Virus record (IMG/VR): IMGVR_UViG_3300045800_000023
Span: 1-64,000 of that record
Direction: 5' to 3' (one strand)
Length of the DNA: 64,000 bases
From: a virus
The notes beneath the pieces were generated by a model. That model was not told the origin of the DNA, ran no database searches, and saw nothing but the letters and a program-made list of their open reading frames with translations. Positions 19,262 to 46,186 of this stretch are shown here, in pieces. Within the stretch, counting starts at the first letter, position 1, and every line of letters begins with the position of its first letter. A program made the position numbers and the translations under genes.

Positions 19262-19268
19262 GCAAAAA

Positions 19269-19423
19269 TGTTGGAGGTAGGGATTGCACCTACACCATTG
19301 CTTTTTCTGGGTCAGTTTCAGATTACATTCTTGCAGCCGAAGCTGGGCGGTTGTCTTTACCTCTGACACTACTAGAGCAAGAGTAGCCCTTAAGCCGCTA
19401 GCAGCACTTCGGGTCTCCGTTCG
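19269..19423 (-). other. tRNA-like remnant
   Basis: The 3' end has a good T-arm (GTAGG-TGCAATC-CCTAC) followed by CTCCAACA, like an acceptor strand plus discriminator. No matching 5' acceptor strand is found within normal distance; GTCAGAG about 90 bases upstream pairs at only 5 of 7 positions. The interval also contains the hairpins CAGC-TTCG-GCTG and CTACT-N8-AGTAG. It is either a decayed tRNA or a highly expanded one. Confidence 0.35.
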
Positions 19424-19504
19424 TTGGGAAGGTAGGATTCGAACCTACGAAGCCGAAGCAACAGATTTACAGTCTGCCCCAGTTGTCCACTTTGGTACTT
19501 CCCA
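19424..19504 (-). tRNA. tRNA-Tyr(GTA)
   Basis: The acceptor TGGGAAG pairs fully with CTTCCCA, with discriminator A. The anticodon loop is CTGTAAA on a CAGA/TCTG stem, the variable arm hairpin is GCTTCGGC (class II, as normal for bacterial tRNA-Tyr), and the T-arm is GTAGG-TTCGAAT-CCTAC. CCA is not encoded. Confidence 0.9.
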
Positions 19505-19512
19505 GTGACTTG

Positions 19513-19594
19513 CTCTGAGAGTAGGACTCGAACCTACAATGTCTTTCGACGCACGGTTAACAGCCGTGTGGGTTGCCATTCCCCTCATCTCAGA
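19513..19594 (-). tRNA. tRNA-Asn(GTT) with long variable arm
   Basis: The acceptor TCTGAGA/TCTCAGA is perfect, with discriminator G. The anticodon stem-loop is CACGG-CTGTTAA-CCGTG and the T-arm GTAGG-TTCGAGT-CCTAC. The variable region is 14 bases and contains the hairpin GTC-GAAA-GAC, whereas tRNA-Asn is normally class I with a 5-base variable loop. Confidence 0.85.
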
Positions 19595-19603
19595 ATATAG
19601 TTG

Positions 19604-19702
19604 GGCGCTAGGTAGGACTTGAACCTACAACGGTCGTATTCGGACGAATTTTGACCATCCAGATTTTTCACTCTGGAGTGTTTACCCTTTCACCACTAGC
19701 GT
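19604..19702 (-). tRNA. tRNA-Phe(GAA) with 30-base variable arm
   Basis: The acceptor ACGCTAG/CTAGCGC pairs at 6 of 7 positions. The D-arm is GTG-N10-CAC, the anticodon stem CCAGA/TCTGG with an 8-base loop GTGAAAAA (GAA), and the T-arm GTAGG-TTCAAGT-CCTAC. The variable arm is about 30 bases and folds into two tiers: GGTC/GACC outside and ATTC-GTCC-GAAT inside. Confidence 0.7.
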
Positions 19703-19712
19703 CATAATTTAG

Positions 19713-19814
19713 TGTTGGAAGAAGGATTCAAACCTTCAAGTCCGACCTTTTTAGGGGCTCTTTTCTGGACTCGGGGCTAAATGCCCCTAGCGTTTATCGT
19801 TTCGCCATTCCAAC
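19713..19814 (-). tRNA. tRNA with 34-base variable arm, anticodon uncertain (TTT?)
   Basis: The acceptor GTTGGAA/TTCCAAC is perfect, the D-stem is GCG/CGC and the T-arm GAAGG-TTTGAAT-CCTTC. The anticodon hairpin GGGGC-ATTTA-GCCCC closes to a 5-base loop; by position the anticodon is TTT, with A instead of U at position 33. The variable region is 34 bases with an AGTCC/GGACT stem. Total length is 102 bases. Confidence 0.6.
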
Positions 19815-19820
19815 ATGTTG

Positions 19821-19921
19821 TCCAAGGGGCAAGATTTACACTTGCAAATTGTGGGCTATTGGTCCGGACCTATTCACCCACTCCGGTATCCCCGGCGCGT
19901 CTATAATTCCGCCACCCTCGG
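19821..19921 (-). tRNA. Leu-type tRNA with giant variable arm, anticodon uncertain
   Basis: The acceptor CCGAGGG/CCCTTGG pairs with one wobble. The D-arm GCGGAATTATAGACGC is typical of tRNA-Leu. The anticodon hairpin CCGG-GGATA-CCGG has a 5-base loop with no clear U33-anticodon. The variable arm of about 36 bases has GTGGG/CCCAC outside and GGT-CCGG-ACC inside. The T-loop is TGTAAAT. Confidence 0.55.
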
Positions 19922-19925
19922 TTGG

Positions 19926-19995
19926 TGCCGGGACCAGGATTCGATACCTGGAACCACCTCATTTCATAGAGGCTGCTGACTTCGCATATCCCGGC
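19926..19995 (-). tRNA. tRNA-Phe-like (GAA) with irregular loops
   Basis: The acceptor GCCGGGA/TCCCGGC is perfect, with discriminator A. The D-arm is TGC-N7-GCA. The anticodon hairpin CCTC-TATGAAAT-GAGG has an 8-base loop holding GAA. The T-arm CCAGG-TATCGAAT-CCTGG has an 8-base loop, one A more than canonical TTCGAAT. The variable loop is a normal 5 bases. Confidence 0.65.
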
Positions 19996-20235: not shown

Positions 20236-20263
20236 ATTATACTATAGTTCTTCTAATTGTCAA
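20236..20263 (-). promoter_or_regulatory. Consensus sigma70 promoter
   Basis: TTGACA and TATAAT, both perfect, are separated by 16 bases on the minus strand. It likely drives the 69-residue gene and perhaps the tRNA cluster. The leader TACAAAATCGAAAGGAA matches that of the next upstream small gene. Confidence 0.8.
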
Positions 20264-42537: not shown

Positions 42538-43155
42538 ATGACAACTCCTGACAATACTAAACAGTGCTCTAAATGTAAACGAGAAAAACCTGTGTCCGAA
42601 TTTCACAACACAAAAAGATCCAAGGACGGCAAGGCCTCCTGGTGTAAGGTGTGTATGGCTATTCGGTATCTGGAAAACAAGGATAAGGTCGCTCAAAAAA
42701 ACAAGGAAAATTCAACCTCGATTTCTGTTAGAATGAAAGCTTGGAGGGCGGCCAATCGGTTAAAGATAAAAGAAAACAAGAAAAGATGGGACCAAGAAAA
42801 CAAGAATTGGATAAACACTCAACAGAGAGAGCGCAGAGCCACGGACATAAACTTCAGGATAGCCGAATCATTACGCAAAAGAGTGTGGAAATCGGTAAGG
42901 AAAGGGAAAAGGGCTGGCTCTGCGATTAGAGACTGCGGGTGTTCTGTAGGGTTTCTGCGAAGTTATTTAGAATCTAAGTTCCTCCCTGGGATGACCTGGG
43001 ACAATTGGGGGCCGAAAGGTTGGCACATTGACCATATCACGCCACTGGTCGCCTTTGACTTGACAGAAAAAGACCAGTTTCTTGCAGCCTGCCATTACAC
43101 TAATTTACAGCCTCTATGGTGGAAAGACAACCTTAGCAAGTCAGCAAAATTCTAG
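42538..43155 (+). CDS. HNH endonuclease with N-terminal zinc finger
   Basis: This 205-residue protein has an N-terminal CSKCKREKPVSEF...CKVC zinc finger, a basic helical middle and a C-terminal HNH-like core (GWHIDHITPLVAFDL...HYTNLQPLWWKDNLSKS). It is a paralogue of the gene at 59172. It sits alone on the plus strand among minus-strand genes and overlaps the next gene by 4 bases, the pattern of a mobile homing-endonuclease gene. Confidence 0.8.
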   Translation: MTTPDNTKQCSKCKREKPVSEFHNTKRSKDGKASWCKVCMAIRYLENKDKVAQKNKENSTSISVRMKAWRAANRLKIKENKKRWDQENKNWINTQQRERRATDINFRIAESLRKRVWKSVRKGKRAGSAIRDCGCSVGFLRSYLESKFLPGMTWDNWGPKGWHIDHITPLVAFDLTEKDQFLAACHYTNLQPLWWKDNLSKSAKF

Positions 43156-44240
43156 ACACAGCCCACAATCCGCATGTAAGAGTCTGTTGTTATTTTAGCG
43201 GAGGACAAAGCTTGAGTTACCGATGCCCCCGTTTTCCGCATCTGGAACAGAATCGACGAATAAGGATACGCGGTCGCGACTGAGGCAAATTCTTTTTGGG
43301 ATATTCTATCCTTTATACTGTTGTAGGTCTTACCGATGGTCTCTACGGTATCCACATGTTTTTGTTGAATTTCTTCAAAAATATCCAGAAGAGTTGGGAA
43401 CGACGATATGGCTATTTTTAGTTCACTATACTCGCCCTTGCGGATTACCTCGCACATGCGCTTCTTGGACAACGAGTCCTTGGCATGATGCAGCATAACG
43501 TAGGCCGGTGACTTGATTTTGACCCGGTTAAAGTGGCTGTCCACTACAACGAACCCCTCGTGCTCCAAAGGGTTGAGCCCCTCAGCCGCCTTGATGCAAT
43601 CTTCAATAGAATTGAGGGGGTAGACCTTGACAGAATTGAAGGCTTCCGGTTGTAAGGATACAGAAACCTCCTTAAGGGTATTCTTGTTTCGTCCACCGAT
43701 AAGGTGTAGGGACGCTTCTTTGTGGTCTACCACGACTCGGTTGAGAGGCCCGGTAAGCTCAAAGGCGTAAGAAAAATCTGTCCCCAGCCATTCTGTCTTG
43801 CACCCCTGCTTCTCCCAGGTTTTCCAAAACAATTCTTCAAAGGTCTTGCCGTAATCACCTACCTGGCCGCTTGCGTCTGGAGTGCCAGAGGTTGCGACGT
43901 GCCAATCGTCGTCATAGTAATACAGTTGACACAACGATCCATCTTCTTTAGCCTGTACCTCAGCCGTAGACCAATCGATTTTGGCAGCGAGGGGCTCCCC
44001 ATAGTTGAAGAACTTCCTGAAGGTATAGCAGATTACCTTCCAGTTGTCTTTTTCGTCCAGGATGATGCCTCGGGCCTCCTGGACAATTGGCTCCTTGAAG
44101 TCAGACTCGATTTGGCTATACTTGAACAAACAGAGCTGGTTATATCCAGAATGCCGCTTGCAGTCAATCGAATACAGCTCCTTGAGCTTTTCAATGCCGT
44201 TAGGCGTATTGCGCAAGAATTTTTGGATTTCGAGTTCCAT
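43152..44240 (-). CDS. T4 Rnl1-like RNA ligase
   Basis: This 362-residue protein has the Rnl1 hallmark FRKFFNYGE, then motif I KEDGSL (adenylated lysine), YAFELTGPLNRVV (III), HEGFVVVD (IV) and VKIKSPAYV (V). T4 Rnl1 repairs tRNA cut in the anticodon loop by host defence nucleases. It has its own promoter whose -10 box ends 6 bases before the ATG. Neighbours are a phosphoesterase, an Rnl2-like ligase and tRNA genes, consistent with RNA repair. Confidence 0.85.
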   Translation of the reverse strand: MELEIQKFLRNTPNGIEKLKELYSIDCKRHSGYNQLCLFKYSQIESDFKEPIVQEARGIILDEKDNWKVICYTFRKFFNYGEPLAAKIDWSTAEVQAKEDGSLCQLYYYDDDWHVATSGTPDASGQVGDYGKTFEELFWKTWEKQGCKTEWLGTDFSYAFELTGPLNRVVVDHKEASLHLIGGRNKNTLKEVSVSLQPEAFNSVKVYPLNSIEDCIKAAEGLNPLEHEGFVVVDSHFNRVKIKSPAYVMLHHAKDSLSKKRMCEVIRKGEYSELKIAISSFPTLLDIFEEIQQKHVDTVETIGKTYNSIKDRISQKEFASVATAYPYSSILFQMRKTGASVTQALSSAKITTDSYMRIVGCV

Positions 44241-44246
44241 GTAGGT

Positions 44247-44274
44247 ATCTTACTCTCATCTGGCTAGATGTCAA
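44247..44274 (-). promoter_or_regulatory. sigma70-like leaderless promoter of the Rnl1-like gene
   Basis: On the minus strand TTGACA and TAAGAT are separated by 16 bases; 6 bases (ACCTAC) separate the -10 box from the ATG at 44240. Confidence 0.7.
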
Positions 44275-45013
44275 TAATTTTCGGCTCCCAAAAAGCAGGT
44301 AGCTCGTGGATGTACCCAGCTGGATTAGAAACAATCCGGGTATTTCCAATCTTGTAGTCCACCGGTTCATGGCTGTGGCCGTGTACGAAGGCTAAAATAT
44401 GACTGTCGGCAATCAGTTCATCATTGTCGAACCCAACGAAGAACCGGTTGATAGAGCTTCGGCGGTATTTTGGATGGACAGAGCTGGAGCTAGGCAAATG
44501 ATGCGACACGACGATACAAGGTTCGTCTTTGATACCGTGCAACAAAATGTCGAATCTTTCGTTCCTGCGGTAAATCTCTGGCTCCAGGCCTTGGATATAC
44601 CCAAAATCGTTCATCAAGTCTTTGTAGTACCTATGGTCTGGTGCATCTGGGAACCACAGGGTCCCTGCCAACATAGAAAGGTTTCCTAATGCTGGAATAT
44701 CTTGGCTAGTCAGGATTTTGGCCCTGGAAGCAACTGTTAGGTTGGGTATTTTGTCAGGAAGTTTGTGAGCTTTGATGTCAACTTCAGTAATTGATGCACT
44801 GTAGCATTCGTGGTTACCCAGTACATAGAGAACATGCCTCGATTTGGCACAGATTTCTCTAAGATTTAGCTTCCACCTCCAATGGTCAGCTTGGGACAAA
44901 TCCCCAGCAATGACGGTAAGGTCGCAATCGGGTACAACCAACTGCGACACAAACTCTTCCCCACCGTCTCGGTGCATGTCCAGGTGGAGGTCGGAAAGTA
45001 GACAAATTTTCAT
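44264..45013 (-). CDS. Metallophosphoesterase
   Basis: This 249-residue protein has the full calcineurin-like motif set: DLHLD, AGDLSQ, LGNHE, VSHHLP and HGHSH, which bind two metal ions. Substrate is unknown; phage relatives act as phosphodiesterases or phosphatases on nucleic acids or nucleotides. It lies between two RNA ligase genes, so trimming 2',3'-cyclic phosphate or other RNA-end processing is a testable idea. The promoter leaves a 6-base gap before the ATG. Confidence 0.85.
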   Translation of the reverse strand: MKICLLSDLHLDMHRDGGEEFVSQLVVPDCDLTVIAGDLSQADHWRWKLNLREICAKSRHVLYVLGNHECYSASITEVDIKAHKLPDKIPNLTVASRAKILTSQDIPALGNLSMLAGTLWFPDAPDHRYYKDLMNDFGYIQGLEPEIYRRNERFDILLHGIKDEPCIVVSHHLPSSSSVHPKYRRSSINRFFVGFDNDELIADSHILAFVHGHSHEPVDYKIGNTRIVSNPAGYIHELPAFWEPKIIDI

Positions 45014-45019
45014 GGGCCT

Positions 45020-45047
45020 ACACTACCAGGATCTAAAGAATTGTCAA
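45020..45047 (-). promoter_or_regulatory. sigma70-like leaderless promoter of the phosphoesterase gene
   Basis: On the minus strand TTGACA and TAGTGT are separated by 16 bases; the -10 box ends 6 bases before the ATG at 45013. Confidence 0.65.
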
Positions 45048-45928
45048 TCCTTGATAATGCTCAAATGCTGCTTAAACAGCTTGGCCGTCCTGTTACCAAT
45101 TTCCTTGCGTAGGGGCATGGTATCAACAACTTCGCCGTCAGATTCTCTTAAGACATCTTCTGTCATTCGAGCAATTACGTCCTTGGTCCTTTCGATGCTG
45201 ATACTCTCGGTCTCTCCCATCTTGTCGAGTATGTGCTCAAGGCGCATCGGGGTAACCCATTCATCAATGATTAGAGCTACGCCTTCAAGAACCCGTCGTT
45301 TTTCCTCAGATTCAACGGTCCTTACAGACTTGGTCTCACGAAATTCTTCCCGCTTGTGCTTACAAATGATGCGGGAATTTTCATCCGTACCATAGGAGAA
45401 TTCCATCAAGGGCCTGGCGACGATACCTTCACGCAGCTTGTCATTGCCGCAGCCGTTCCTGATGGCCTGCACTGAAAAAGCATCGCGTTCTGCGTCAAGA
45501 GCTTCGACCGTGGCCGGTACCCTCTTGTAATGAACAAACTCCAGGCCCAGGTTGTTGGCGTACTGTTCAGCTCTCGGGACCTCAAGCCACCTTTCGGCAA
45601 CCCAGGCATCAAAAGCGATGAACTTTAGAGAAGGCCCATAGGTAGCAGACATTCTCTGCATCTTGCCGCCATATGCTTCACCATACAAAGTGAACTTTGT
45701 GTAGCCGATGCTCTTGATTTTTTCAAGGAGTTCTTCCTGGTTGAACAGCTTCACGAATTCCTCGTACTTGGCCCCTCCAGAGAAGAAACGAAGCTGGCTT
45801 CCTTCGGGCTTTTCGACGTCATAAGAGACATGAGCGGAGGTTCCATGAATTTTTTCAAGAGCGTAGCATTCCTTGAACAGGAGGATGTTTTTTGACGCAT
45901 AGAGATTTTTAATGTGTAAGTAACCCAT
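45044..45928 (-). CDS. T4 Rnl2-like RNA ligase
   Basis: This 294-residue protein starts at the ATG at 45928 (AAGGAG upstream). Motif I EKIHGTSAH matches the Rnl2 type, with YGEAYGGKMQ (III), EGIVARP (IV) and ICKHKREEF (V). Rnl2-type ligases seal nicks in double-stranded RNA. A 90-residue C-terminal helical domain follows. It lies directly downstream of a tRNA cluster on the same strand, so it may be co-transcribed with the tRNAs. Confidence 0.83.
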   Translation of the reverse strand: MGYLHIKNLYASKNILLFKECYALEKIHGTSAHVSYDVEKPEGSQLRFFSGGAKYEEFVKLFNQEELLEKIKSIGYTKFTLYGEAYGGKMQRMSATYGPSLKFIAFDAWVAERWLEVPRAEQYANNLGLEFVHYKRVPATVEALDAERDAFSVQAIRNGCGNDKLREGIVARPLMEFSYGTDENSRIICKHKREEFRETKSVRTVESEEKRRVLEGVALIIDEWVTPMRLEHILDKMGETESISIERTKDVIARMTEDVLRESDGEVVDTMPLRKEIGNRTAKLFKQHLSIIKD

Positions 45929-45954
45929 TGTGTCATACTCCTTGATGCGGTGTG

Positions 45955-46029
45955 TAGAGGTGGTGAGAATTGCACTCACGAATTTCCCGATTATAGATCG
46001 GGAGCCTTCGACTACTTGGCCACACCTCA
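45955..46029 (-). tRNA. tRNA with TAT anticodon by position (irregular, C33)
   Basis: The acceptor TGAGGTG/CACCTCT pairs except T1-T72. The D-arm is GCC-N11-GGC, the anticodon arm CCCGA-TCTATAA-TCGGG and the T-arm GTGAG-TGCAATT-CTCAC. By position the anticodon is TAT (Ile) but base 33 is C rather than U; reading T as base 33 would give CTA. The T-loop has TGC in place of TTC. Identity is uncertain. Confidence 0.55.
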
Positions 46030-46030
46030 G

Positions 46031-46104
46031 TAACCCCGGCCAGAATTGCACTGGCAACCCCAAATTTAGGAAATTTGTACTCTATCTAATTGAGCTACGG
46101 AGTT
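46031..46104 (-). tRNA. tRNA-Arg(CCT)
   Basis: The acceptor AACTCCG/CGGGGTT is fully paired (with wobble), discriminator A. The D-arm is GCTC-N9-GAGT, the anticodon arm CAAAT-TTCCTAA-ATTTG, the variable loop GGGTT and the T-arm GCCAG-TGCAATT-CTGGC. It reads AGG. CCA is not encoded. Confidence 0.88.
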
Positions 46105-46112
46105 GAATCTAG

Positions 46113-46186
46113 AGGCCCTGGTTGGATTCGAACCAAAGTGACGGGTTTTGCAGACCCGCGCCTAAACCAGGCTCGACCACAGGACC
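46113..46186 (-). tRNA. tRNA-Cys(GCA)
   Basis: The acceptor GGTCCTG/CAGGGCC is paired with one wobble, discriminator T. The anticodon arm is CGGGT-CTGCAAA-ACCCG. The T-arm has loop TTCGAAT on a four-pair stem. The D-stem is short (GTC/GGC). Confidence 0.8.

What the first reader, a model, noticed from the sequence alone, without database searches (positions are those of the whole stretch)
19513..19921. Four adjacent tRNAs with abnormally long, structured variable arms
Seen: tRNA-Asn(GTT) has a 14-base hairpin variable arm. The next three tRNAs (99, 102 and 101 bases) have variable arms of about 30, 34 and 36 bases, each folding into an outer stem plus an inner paired element (for example GGTC/GACC outside ATTC-GTCC-GAAT). 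Acceptor and T-arms remain well paired, so these are not random decay. Known tRNAs rarely exceed about 25 bases here, and Asn and Phe tRNAs are class I. Possible roles: evading tRNA-cutting toxins, acting as decoys, or a novel recognition element.
Basis: seen in the sequence. Interest (0 to 1): 0.75.

Follow-up and report, generated by a model that had tools for sequence, protein, structure and literature searches.

The report
Phage tRNA look-alikes with giant arms
A phage genome carries a row of tRNA-shaped RNAs whose side arm is well beyond the usual maximum size while the part that reads the genetic code is malformed, which suggests that they imitate tRNAs, perhaps to distract host enzymes, rather than help build proteins.

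Summary
On the minus strand, 19513-19921, tRNA-Asn has a 14-nt hairpin variable arm and the next three tRNA-like genes have variable regions of 30, 34 and 37 nt that fold as described. The review I checked allows about 21 nt at most.

None of the three long-arm RNAs has a normal anticodon loop: one has 8 nt, one lacks U33, one has 5 nt. And a relative phage has, at the same place, an RNA with the same arm. Between the two, 24 stem pairs outside the anticodon arm show 7 double compensatory changes and none broken (P = 2e-5), while 3 of 5 anticodon pairs are broken.

So selection seems to keep the tRNA shape and the arm but not decoding. I favour non-decoding tRNA mimics, perhaps decoys for tRNA-attacking host factors (confidence 0.38). 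Decay of old tRNAs and evasion of V-loop nucleases remain open. A single intron is not supported for the three.

Closest known: irregular allo-tRNA-like polycistrons of soil metatranscriptomes. A side result may be more surprising: a distant relative carries circularly permuted tRNA genes.

The parts
20236..20263 (-). Consensus sigma-70 promoter (TTGACA-16-TATAAT) upstream of a small ORF and the array
   Evidence: 12 of 12 matches; same in the sister. A consensus match, not proof of use.
19923..19995 (-). Irregular tRNA-like RNA with encoded CCA; 8-nt anticodon and T-loops
   Evidence: fold; score 12 against 25-32 for the array's and second cluster's regular tRNAs
19821..19921 (-). 101-nt tRNA-like RNA, 5-nt anticodon loop
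   Evidence: no Rfam match
19846..19882 (-). its 37-nt variable region
   Evidence: p = 0.020
19713..19814 (-). 102-nt tRNA-like RNA, A33 or 5-nt anticodon loop
   Evidence: Rfam 39.3 bits; fold
19738..19771 (-). its 34-nt variable region
   Evidence: p = 0.122
19604..19702 (-). 99-nt tRNA-like RNA, 8-nt anticodon loop; counterpart of the sister's 98-nt RNA
   Evidence: Rfam 36.6 bits; folds; covariation
19629..19658 (-). its 30-nt variable region with inner hairpin AUUC-GUCC-GAAU
   Evidence: (p = 0.080)
19513..19594 (-). tRNA-Asn(GUU), regular anticodon loop, class II-like arm
19538..19551 (-). its 14-nt variable region GUC-GAAA-GAC
   Evidence: p = 0.0045
19424..19504 (-). tRNA-Tyr(GUA), regular
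   Evidence: similar to jumbo-phage tRNA-Tyr
19268..19420 (-). Conserved tRNA-like end element of the array
   Evidence: shared blocks with the sister; no Rfam match
43152..46063 (-). T4 Rnl1-type RNA ligase, phosphoesterase and second RNA ligase near the second tRNA cluster
   Evidence: Pfam PF09511, PF00149, PF09414

Best explanation
The array is transcribed as one RNA from a sigma-70 promoter and cut into tRNA-sized pieces. Tyr and Asn are ordinary decoding tRNAs (Asn with an added class II-like arm). The three long-arm RNAs, and the irregular one next to them, are tRNA mimics: they keep the acceptor, D and T stems and (the three) carry a variable region of 30-37 nt, but have no workable anticodon loop. 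Shown: structure, covariation with one relative, promoter match, retention at the same place in a relative. Inferred: expression, processing, and that they act by being bound by host factors that recognise tRNA shape, acceptor end or variable arm, most likely as decoys for tRNA-attacking defence enzymes, in a phage that also encodes two RNA ligases of the kind used to repair tRNA.
For: Minimum-energy folds are cloverleaf plus variable arm. 99-nt RNA against the sister RNA: 24 stem pairs outside the anticodon arm, 7 double compensatory, 0 broken in the sister, hypergeometric P = 2.3e-5; anticodon stem 3 of 5 broken. Outer variable stems of four RNAs pair 20 of 20 with themselves, 23 of 60 crosswise (the stems were chosen because they pair, so this overstates). 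None of the three has a standard anticodon loop. The sister's array at this place has no regular uninterrupted tRNA: ARAGORN calls two genes, a 71-nt 'Phe', which I read as part of the 121-nt interrupted RNA, and a 99-nt 'Gly', which is the 98-nt RNA. Perfect promoters in both phages. Both RNA ligase families in both phages. [quoted passage not shown]
Against: One homologue only: 8 viral and 2 genome collection scans gave no other, and the next relative contig stops before the array. The 99-nt and 102-nt arms alone are not clearly significant. The run of five A in the 99-nt RNA could be a sequencing slip that makes the loop 8 nt. No target, no expression data. Decoy action is not tested. Decaying tRNAs are common in phage arrays (general knowledge).
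Confidence: 0.38

Rival explanations
1. Decay: old phage tRNA genes that have lost their anticodon function and gained extra sequence by slippage or insertion; the remaining stems reflect recent loss.
For: Anticodon arms, D-loop GG and T-loop consensus are lost in several members; two of three arms are not significant alone; the array content differs between the two phages.
Against: Acceptor, D, T and variable stems are nearly all intact (55 of 56 acceptor pairs over eight RNAs) and covary with the sister, which decay would not give; decay does not usually add a paired arm.
Confidence: 0.27
2. Decoding tRNAs with remodelled variable arms that defences which cut the variable loop (retron-Eco7, Septu, VapC types) cannot cut.
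For: Such defences exist and T5 tRNA-Tyr resists retron-Eco7 because of its distinctive variable loop (PMC13096335 passage). Asn here and the sister's Ile(UAU) have regular anticodon loops with an added arm.
Against: The three long-arm RNAs lack regular anticodon loops and the sister's counterpart has no anticodon stem. The known targets are tRNA-Tyr, whose arm here is ordinary.
Confidence: 0.17
3. Interrupted tRNAs: the extra segments are short introns removed by a nuclease and rejoined by the phage RNA ligases.
For: The sister's 121-nt RNA becomes a near-perfect tRNA-Phe when 47 nt of the D-loop are left out (score 34.0, 0 of 60 shuffles); a distant relative has permuted tRNA genes; two RNA ligases.
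Against: For the three long-arm RNAs and the sister's 98-nt RNA the best deletion is no better than shuffles with the D-arm kept (0.50, 0.12, 0.82, 0.35). With only the acceptor kept the fractions are 0.05, 0.02, 0.57, 0.08, a weak signal in two that I ascribe to their good D-arms.
Confidence: 0.1
4. Insertion of a mobile hairpin element into variable loops.
For: The inner hairpin AUUC-NNNC-GAAU is alike in the 99-nt RNA and the sister's.
Against: The three arms in the window differ in sequence, and their 11-mers recur only singly elsewhere.
Confidence: 0.03

Closest known systems
Allo-tRNAs and irregular allo-tRNA-like polycistrons of soil metatranscriptomes (Mukai et al. 2017, seen only through the review PMC7609411, section 5)
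   Same: Long variable arm, anticodons that do not match identity, polycistrons with irregular members, extra loops, G-1; some not charged by E. coli enzymes.
   Different: Allo-tRNAs have an 8/4 or 9/3 acceptor branch; here it is 7/5. Here the RNAs lie in a phage genome, with larger variable arms and abnormal anticodon loops.
Nematode nev-tRNAs (Gly CCC, Ile UAU)
   Same: Class II arm on tRNAs with class I anticodons (PMC4033280 passages; PMC4300185 abstract in a search listing).
   Different: Nuclear genes of an animal group that do decode (nev-tRNA-Gly reads GGG as leucine). Nearest to Asn here and to the sister's Ile(UAU).
Anti-defence phage tRNAs (T5 and T6 tRNA-Tyr)
   Same: Phage-encoded; the variable loop decides sensitivity to retron-Eco7 (PMC13096335 passages).
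   Different: Those supply or replace a decoding tRNA; the three RNAs here lack a regular anticodon loop.
Ordinary bacterial class II tRNAs (Leu, Ser, Tyr) and tRNA-Sec
   Same: Paired variable arm right after the anticodon stem.
   Different: Large variable region up to about 21 nt in the review's numbering (PMC9976931 passages); 30-37 nt here.
Engineered allo-tRNAs with hairpin aptamers in the arm (PMC7590224 passages)
   Same: A long hairpin on the variable arm that a partner protein can bind, which can sequester the RNA.
   Different: Synthetic, with a working anticodon.

Membership tests
Canonical class II elongator tRNA | 7-bp acceptor, 5-bp T stem with 7-nt loop | tested here: met
   99-nt: 6 of 7 and 5 of 5; 102- and 101-nt: 7 of 7 and 5 of 5
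Canonical class II elongator tRNA | 7-nt anticodon loop with U33 | tested here: not met
   8 nt; A33 or 5 nt; 5 nt
Canonical class II elongator tRNA | variable region up to about 21 nt | tested here: not met
   30, 34, 37 nt against the review's limit
Canonical class II elongator tRNA | D-loop GG with T-loop U55 and C56 | tested here: inconclusive
   99-nt has both; 102-nt lacks GG and C56; 101-nt lacks GG, U55 and C56 (sequence)
Allo-tRNA | 12-bp acceptor branch as 8/4 or 9/3 | tested here: not met
   7/5 by the stems; a G-1:C73 pair could add one pair in the 99-nt and sister RNAs, and a U-1:A73 pair in the 102-nt RNA
Allo-tRNA | long variable arm | tested here: met
tRNA-Sec | long D stem and 8-bp or longer acceptor (definition partly recalled) | tested here: not met
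   3-4-bp D stem, 7-bp acceptor
Intron-containing tRNA | leaving out one insert yields a regular tRNA | tested here: not met
   for the three long-arm RNAs; met for the sister's L030 8598-8719
Permuted tRNA | 3' half upstream of 5' half | tested here: not met
   none in window or L030
Anti-defence tRNA or decoy | protects the phage from a tRNA-targeting defence | not testable with these tools
   needs infection assays
tRNA charged in the host | aminoacylation | not testable with these tools
   host unknown; needs an assay

The most novel reading that the evidence does not exclude
Phages of this group encode a family of anticodon-less tRNA mimics with a giant variable arm, kept by selection for a role outside decoding. 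In the 99-nt RNA and its sister both G-1 and C73 are kept, the main histidine identity pair (PMC7590224 passage), so they might even be histidine-accepting RNAs that cannot decode. They would give the irregular tRNA polycistrons of soil RNA a phage origin.
Probability: 0.22. Interest if true: 0.82.

Novelty: new variant of a known kind. Interest (0 to 1): 0.58.

Why it matters
Phage tRNAs are usually read as helpers of translation or as replacements for tRNAs that host defences cut. RNAs that keep the tRNA shape and a covarying giant arm but cannot decode would point to a further use, as mimics or decoys, and could explain where the irregular tRNA polycistrons known from soil RNA come from. 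Both claims can be tested with one cloned array.

Tried and rejected
Single intron in the variable or anticodon region: not supported for the three window RNAs nor for the sister's 98-nt RNA by deletion scoring against shuffles (in the 101-nt RNA was cut short of its last base, so one search replaces those rows). The alternative Rfam alignment of the 102-nt RNA (25-nt anticodon loop) keeps A33, so it does not make a better tRNA.

Mobile palindrome: 11-mers of the arms recur only singly elsewhere in the sequences compared. Pattern scan for the inner hairpin plus T-arm: the sister and three other contigs, in which I saw no such arm. Scans for the conserved end element: only the sister. Y RNA/Ro link: no TROVE match in window or sister. 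Permuted-gene reading for the window: none there. More relatives: the baseplate alignment gave one contig that ends about 350 bases upstream, before any array, and two distant ones without tRNAs; genome contigs gave none. A covariance model of the long-arm class was not built, because the four-row alignment puts the arms out of register. Other long hits of my own tRNA finder in relatives include composites of neighbouring tRNAs, so I do not count them. The two-row alignment misplaces one gap in the arm; the pair counts use a hand register of the stems.

Full report
What is there. The window is part of a 65,981-base viral contig with a baseplate wedge gene, DNA polymerase, primase, helicase and ATP-dependent DNA ligase. 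Its nearest relatives are one IMG/VR contig (IMGVR_UViG_3300050025_000126; polymerase 83%, baseplate 67% identical), here called the sister, and, far off, Myxococcus phage Mx1 (polymerase 40%). The host is unknown; a myxobacterium is only a guess.

The observation. Read on the minus strand, the array runs: consensus promoter, small ORF, an irregular RNA with encoded CCA, the 101-, 102- and 99-nt RNAs, Asn, Tyr, and a tRNA-like end element. Shuffling tests give p = 0.0045 for Asn and 0.080, 0.122 and 0.020 for the three long arms (99-, 102-, 101-nt), 0.009 combined. A review of tRNA identity gives the large variable region as up to 16 nucleotides beyond positions 44-48 (passages of PMC9976931), so 30-37 nt is well outside.

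The 99-nt RNA has an 8-nt anticodon loop (GUGAAAAA), the 102-nt RNA has A in place of U33 or a 5-nt loop, the 101-nt RNA has a 5-nt loop, and the neighbour at 19926-19995 has 8-nt anticodon and T-loops. Two of the three also lack the D-loop GG and the T-loop C56 that form the elbow (sequence; the role is recalled). So in this array only Asn and Tyr look able to decode.

The sister. At the same place, upstream of the baseplate gene and downstream of the same kind of perfect promoter, the sister has no regular uninterrupted tRNA but a 98-nt RNA, an armless stem with CCA, a 121-nt RNA and the same end element. ARAGORN calls two genes there, a 71-nt 'Phe' and a 99-nt 'Gly', which I read as part of the 121-nt RNA and as the 98-nt RNA. 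The 98-nt RNA shares the D-arm, the internal loop and the inner hairpin AUUC-NNNC-GAAU with the window's 99-nt RNA. In hand register, 24 stem pairs outside the anticodon arm show 7 changes on both sides, one one-sided change that repairs the A1-C72 mismatch, and none broken in the sister; P = 2.3e-5 if the changes on the two sides were independent. In the anticodon stem 3 of 5 pairs are broken. This is the core evidence, and it rests on one pair of sequences.

Introns. I scored every single internal deletion for how regular a tRNA it leaves. The sister's 121-nt RNA becomes a near-perfect tRNA-Phe(GAA) when 47 nt of its D-loop are left out (score 34.0; 0 of 60 shuffles reach it). For the 99-, 102- and 101-nt RNAs and the sister's 98-nt RNA the best result is matched by 0.50, 0.12, 0.82 and 0.35 of 60 shuffles with the D-arm kept. 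With only the acceptor kept the fractions are 0.05, 0.02, 0.57 and 0.08, so there is a weak signal for the 99- and 102-nt RNAs that I ascribe to their good D-arms.

How it may work. The window and the sister both encode a T4 Rnl1-type and a second RNA ligase, and the window has a phosphoesterase between them. T4 uses such a ligase to mend cut tRNA (recalled). [quoted passage not shown] PMC11555353, passages). RNAs with tRNA shape, a giant arm and no decoding loop could occupy such enzymes. This last step is inference, and no defence that binds these arms is known to me.

Compared with what is known. The nearest kind is the allo-tRNAs and, above all, the irregular polycistrons reported from forest and peat soil RNA, with extra loops, G-1 and no charging by E. 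coli enzymes (PMC7609411, section 5; the original 2017 paper was not held). The acceptor branch here is 7/5, not 8/4 or 9/3, so these are not allo-tRNAs by definition. I found no paper on phage tRNAs with such arms in six searches on tRNA structure and phages (listings, plus the passages cited); that library lacks most subscription journals and all bioRxiv preprints. I therefore call it a new variant of a known kind.

Beyond the window. In a distant relative (IMGVR_UViG_3300049215_000686) two tRNA genes are circularly permuted: T-arm and acceptor 3' strand first, then a spacer, then acceptor 5' strand, D-arm and anticodon arm, with 7 of 7 acceptor pairs; one of them reads as a regular tRNA-Asn(GUU). 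Over the 53 loci named in the script the finder gave these two (each seen in two overlapping loci) and one case formed by two adjacent normal tRNAs (also seen twice), which I discount; shuffles gave 1 hit in 1.54 Mb. The 3' halves follow a repeat ending in CTTACAAGC, and parts of the repeats are complementary to segments further downstream. A 2014 review lists permuted tRNAs only in algae and one archaeon (passages of PMC4033280), and two searches (listings only) showed no phage case.

Noticed in passing
L092 2800-3360 (IMGVR_UViG_3300049215_000686, about 122300-122860): Circularly permuted tRNA genes in a phage contig: 3' half upstream of 5' half, two clear units (one tRNA-Asn GUU) and one likely third with an unusual T-loop, each preceded by a repeat ending CTTACAAGC, with complementary flanking segments.
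   Followed up: partly
L030 8598-8719 (-): tRNA-Phe(GAA) with an insert of about 47 nt in the D-loop; leaving it out gives a near-perfect tRNA.
   Followed up: partly
window 19268-19420 (-) and L030 8440-8597 (-): Conserved tRNA-like element at the end of both arrays: identical block GAAGUGCUGCUAGCGGCUUAAGGG, variable middle, identical T-arm; no Rfam match. Function unknown.
   Followed up: partly
L081 617-704 (-): Sister tRNA-Ile(UAU) with a normal anticodon loop and an added 19-nt variable region, the same anticodon as one of the nematode nev-tRNAs.
   Followed up: partly
L030 8725-8793 (-): A 7-bp acceptor-like stem CGGAACA/UGUUCCG followed by CACCA with no T-arm, between two irregular tRNA-like RNAs.
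   Followed up: no
L062 2181-2283 (+): 103-nt tRNA match in a distant relative with a hairpin in the D-loop and a bulged anticodon arm; deletion test inconclusive.
   Followed up: partly
window 43152-46186 (-): Two RNA ligases and a phosphoesterase next to the second tRNA cluster; both ligase families also in the sister.
   Followed up: partly
L086 (Myxococcus phage Mx1, 36000-66500): 22 annotated tRNAs interspersed with a TROVE-domain protein, a calcineurin-like phosphoesterase and a peptidyl-tRNA hydrolase.
   Followed up: no
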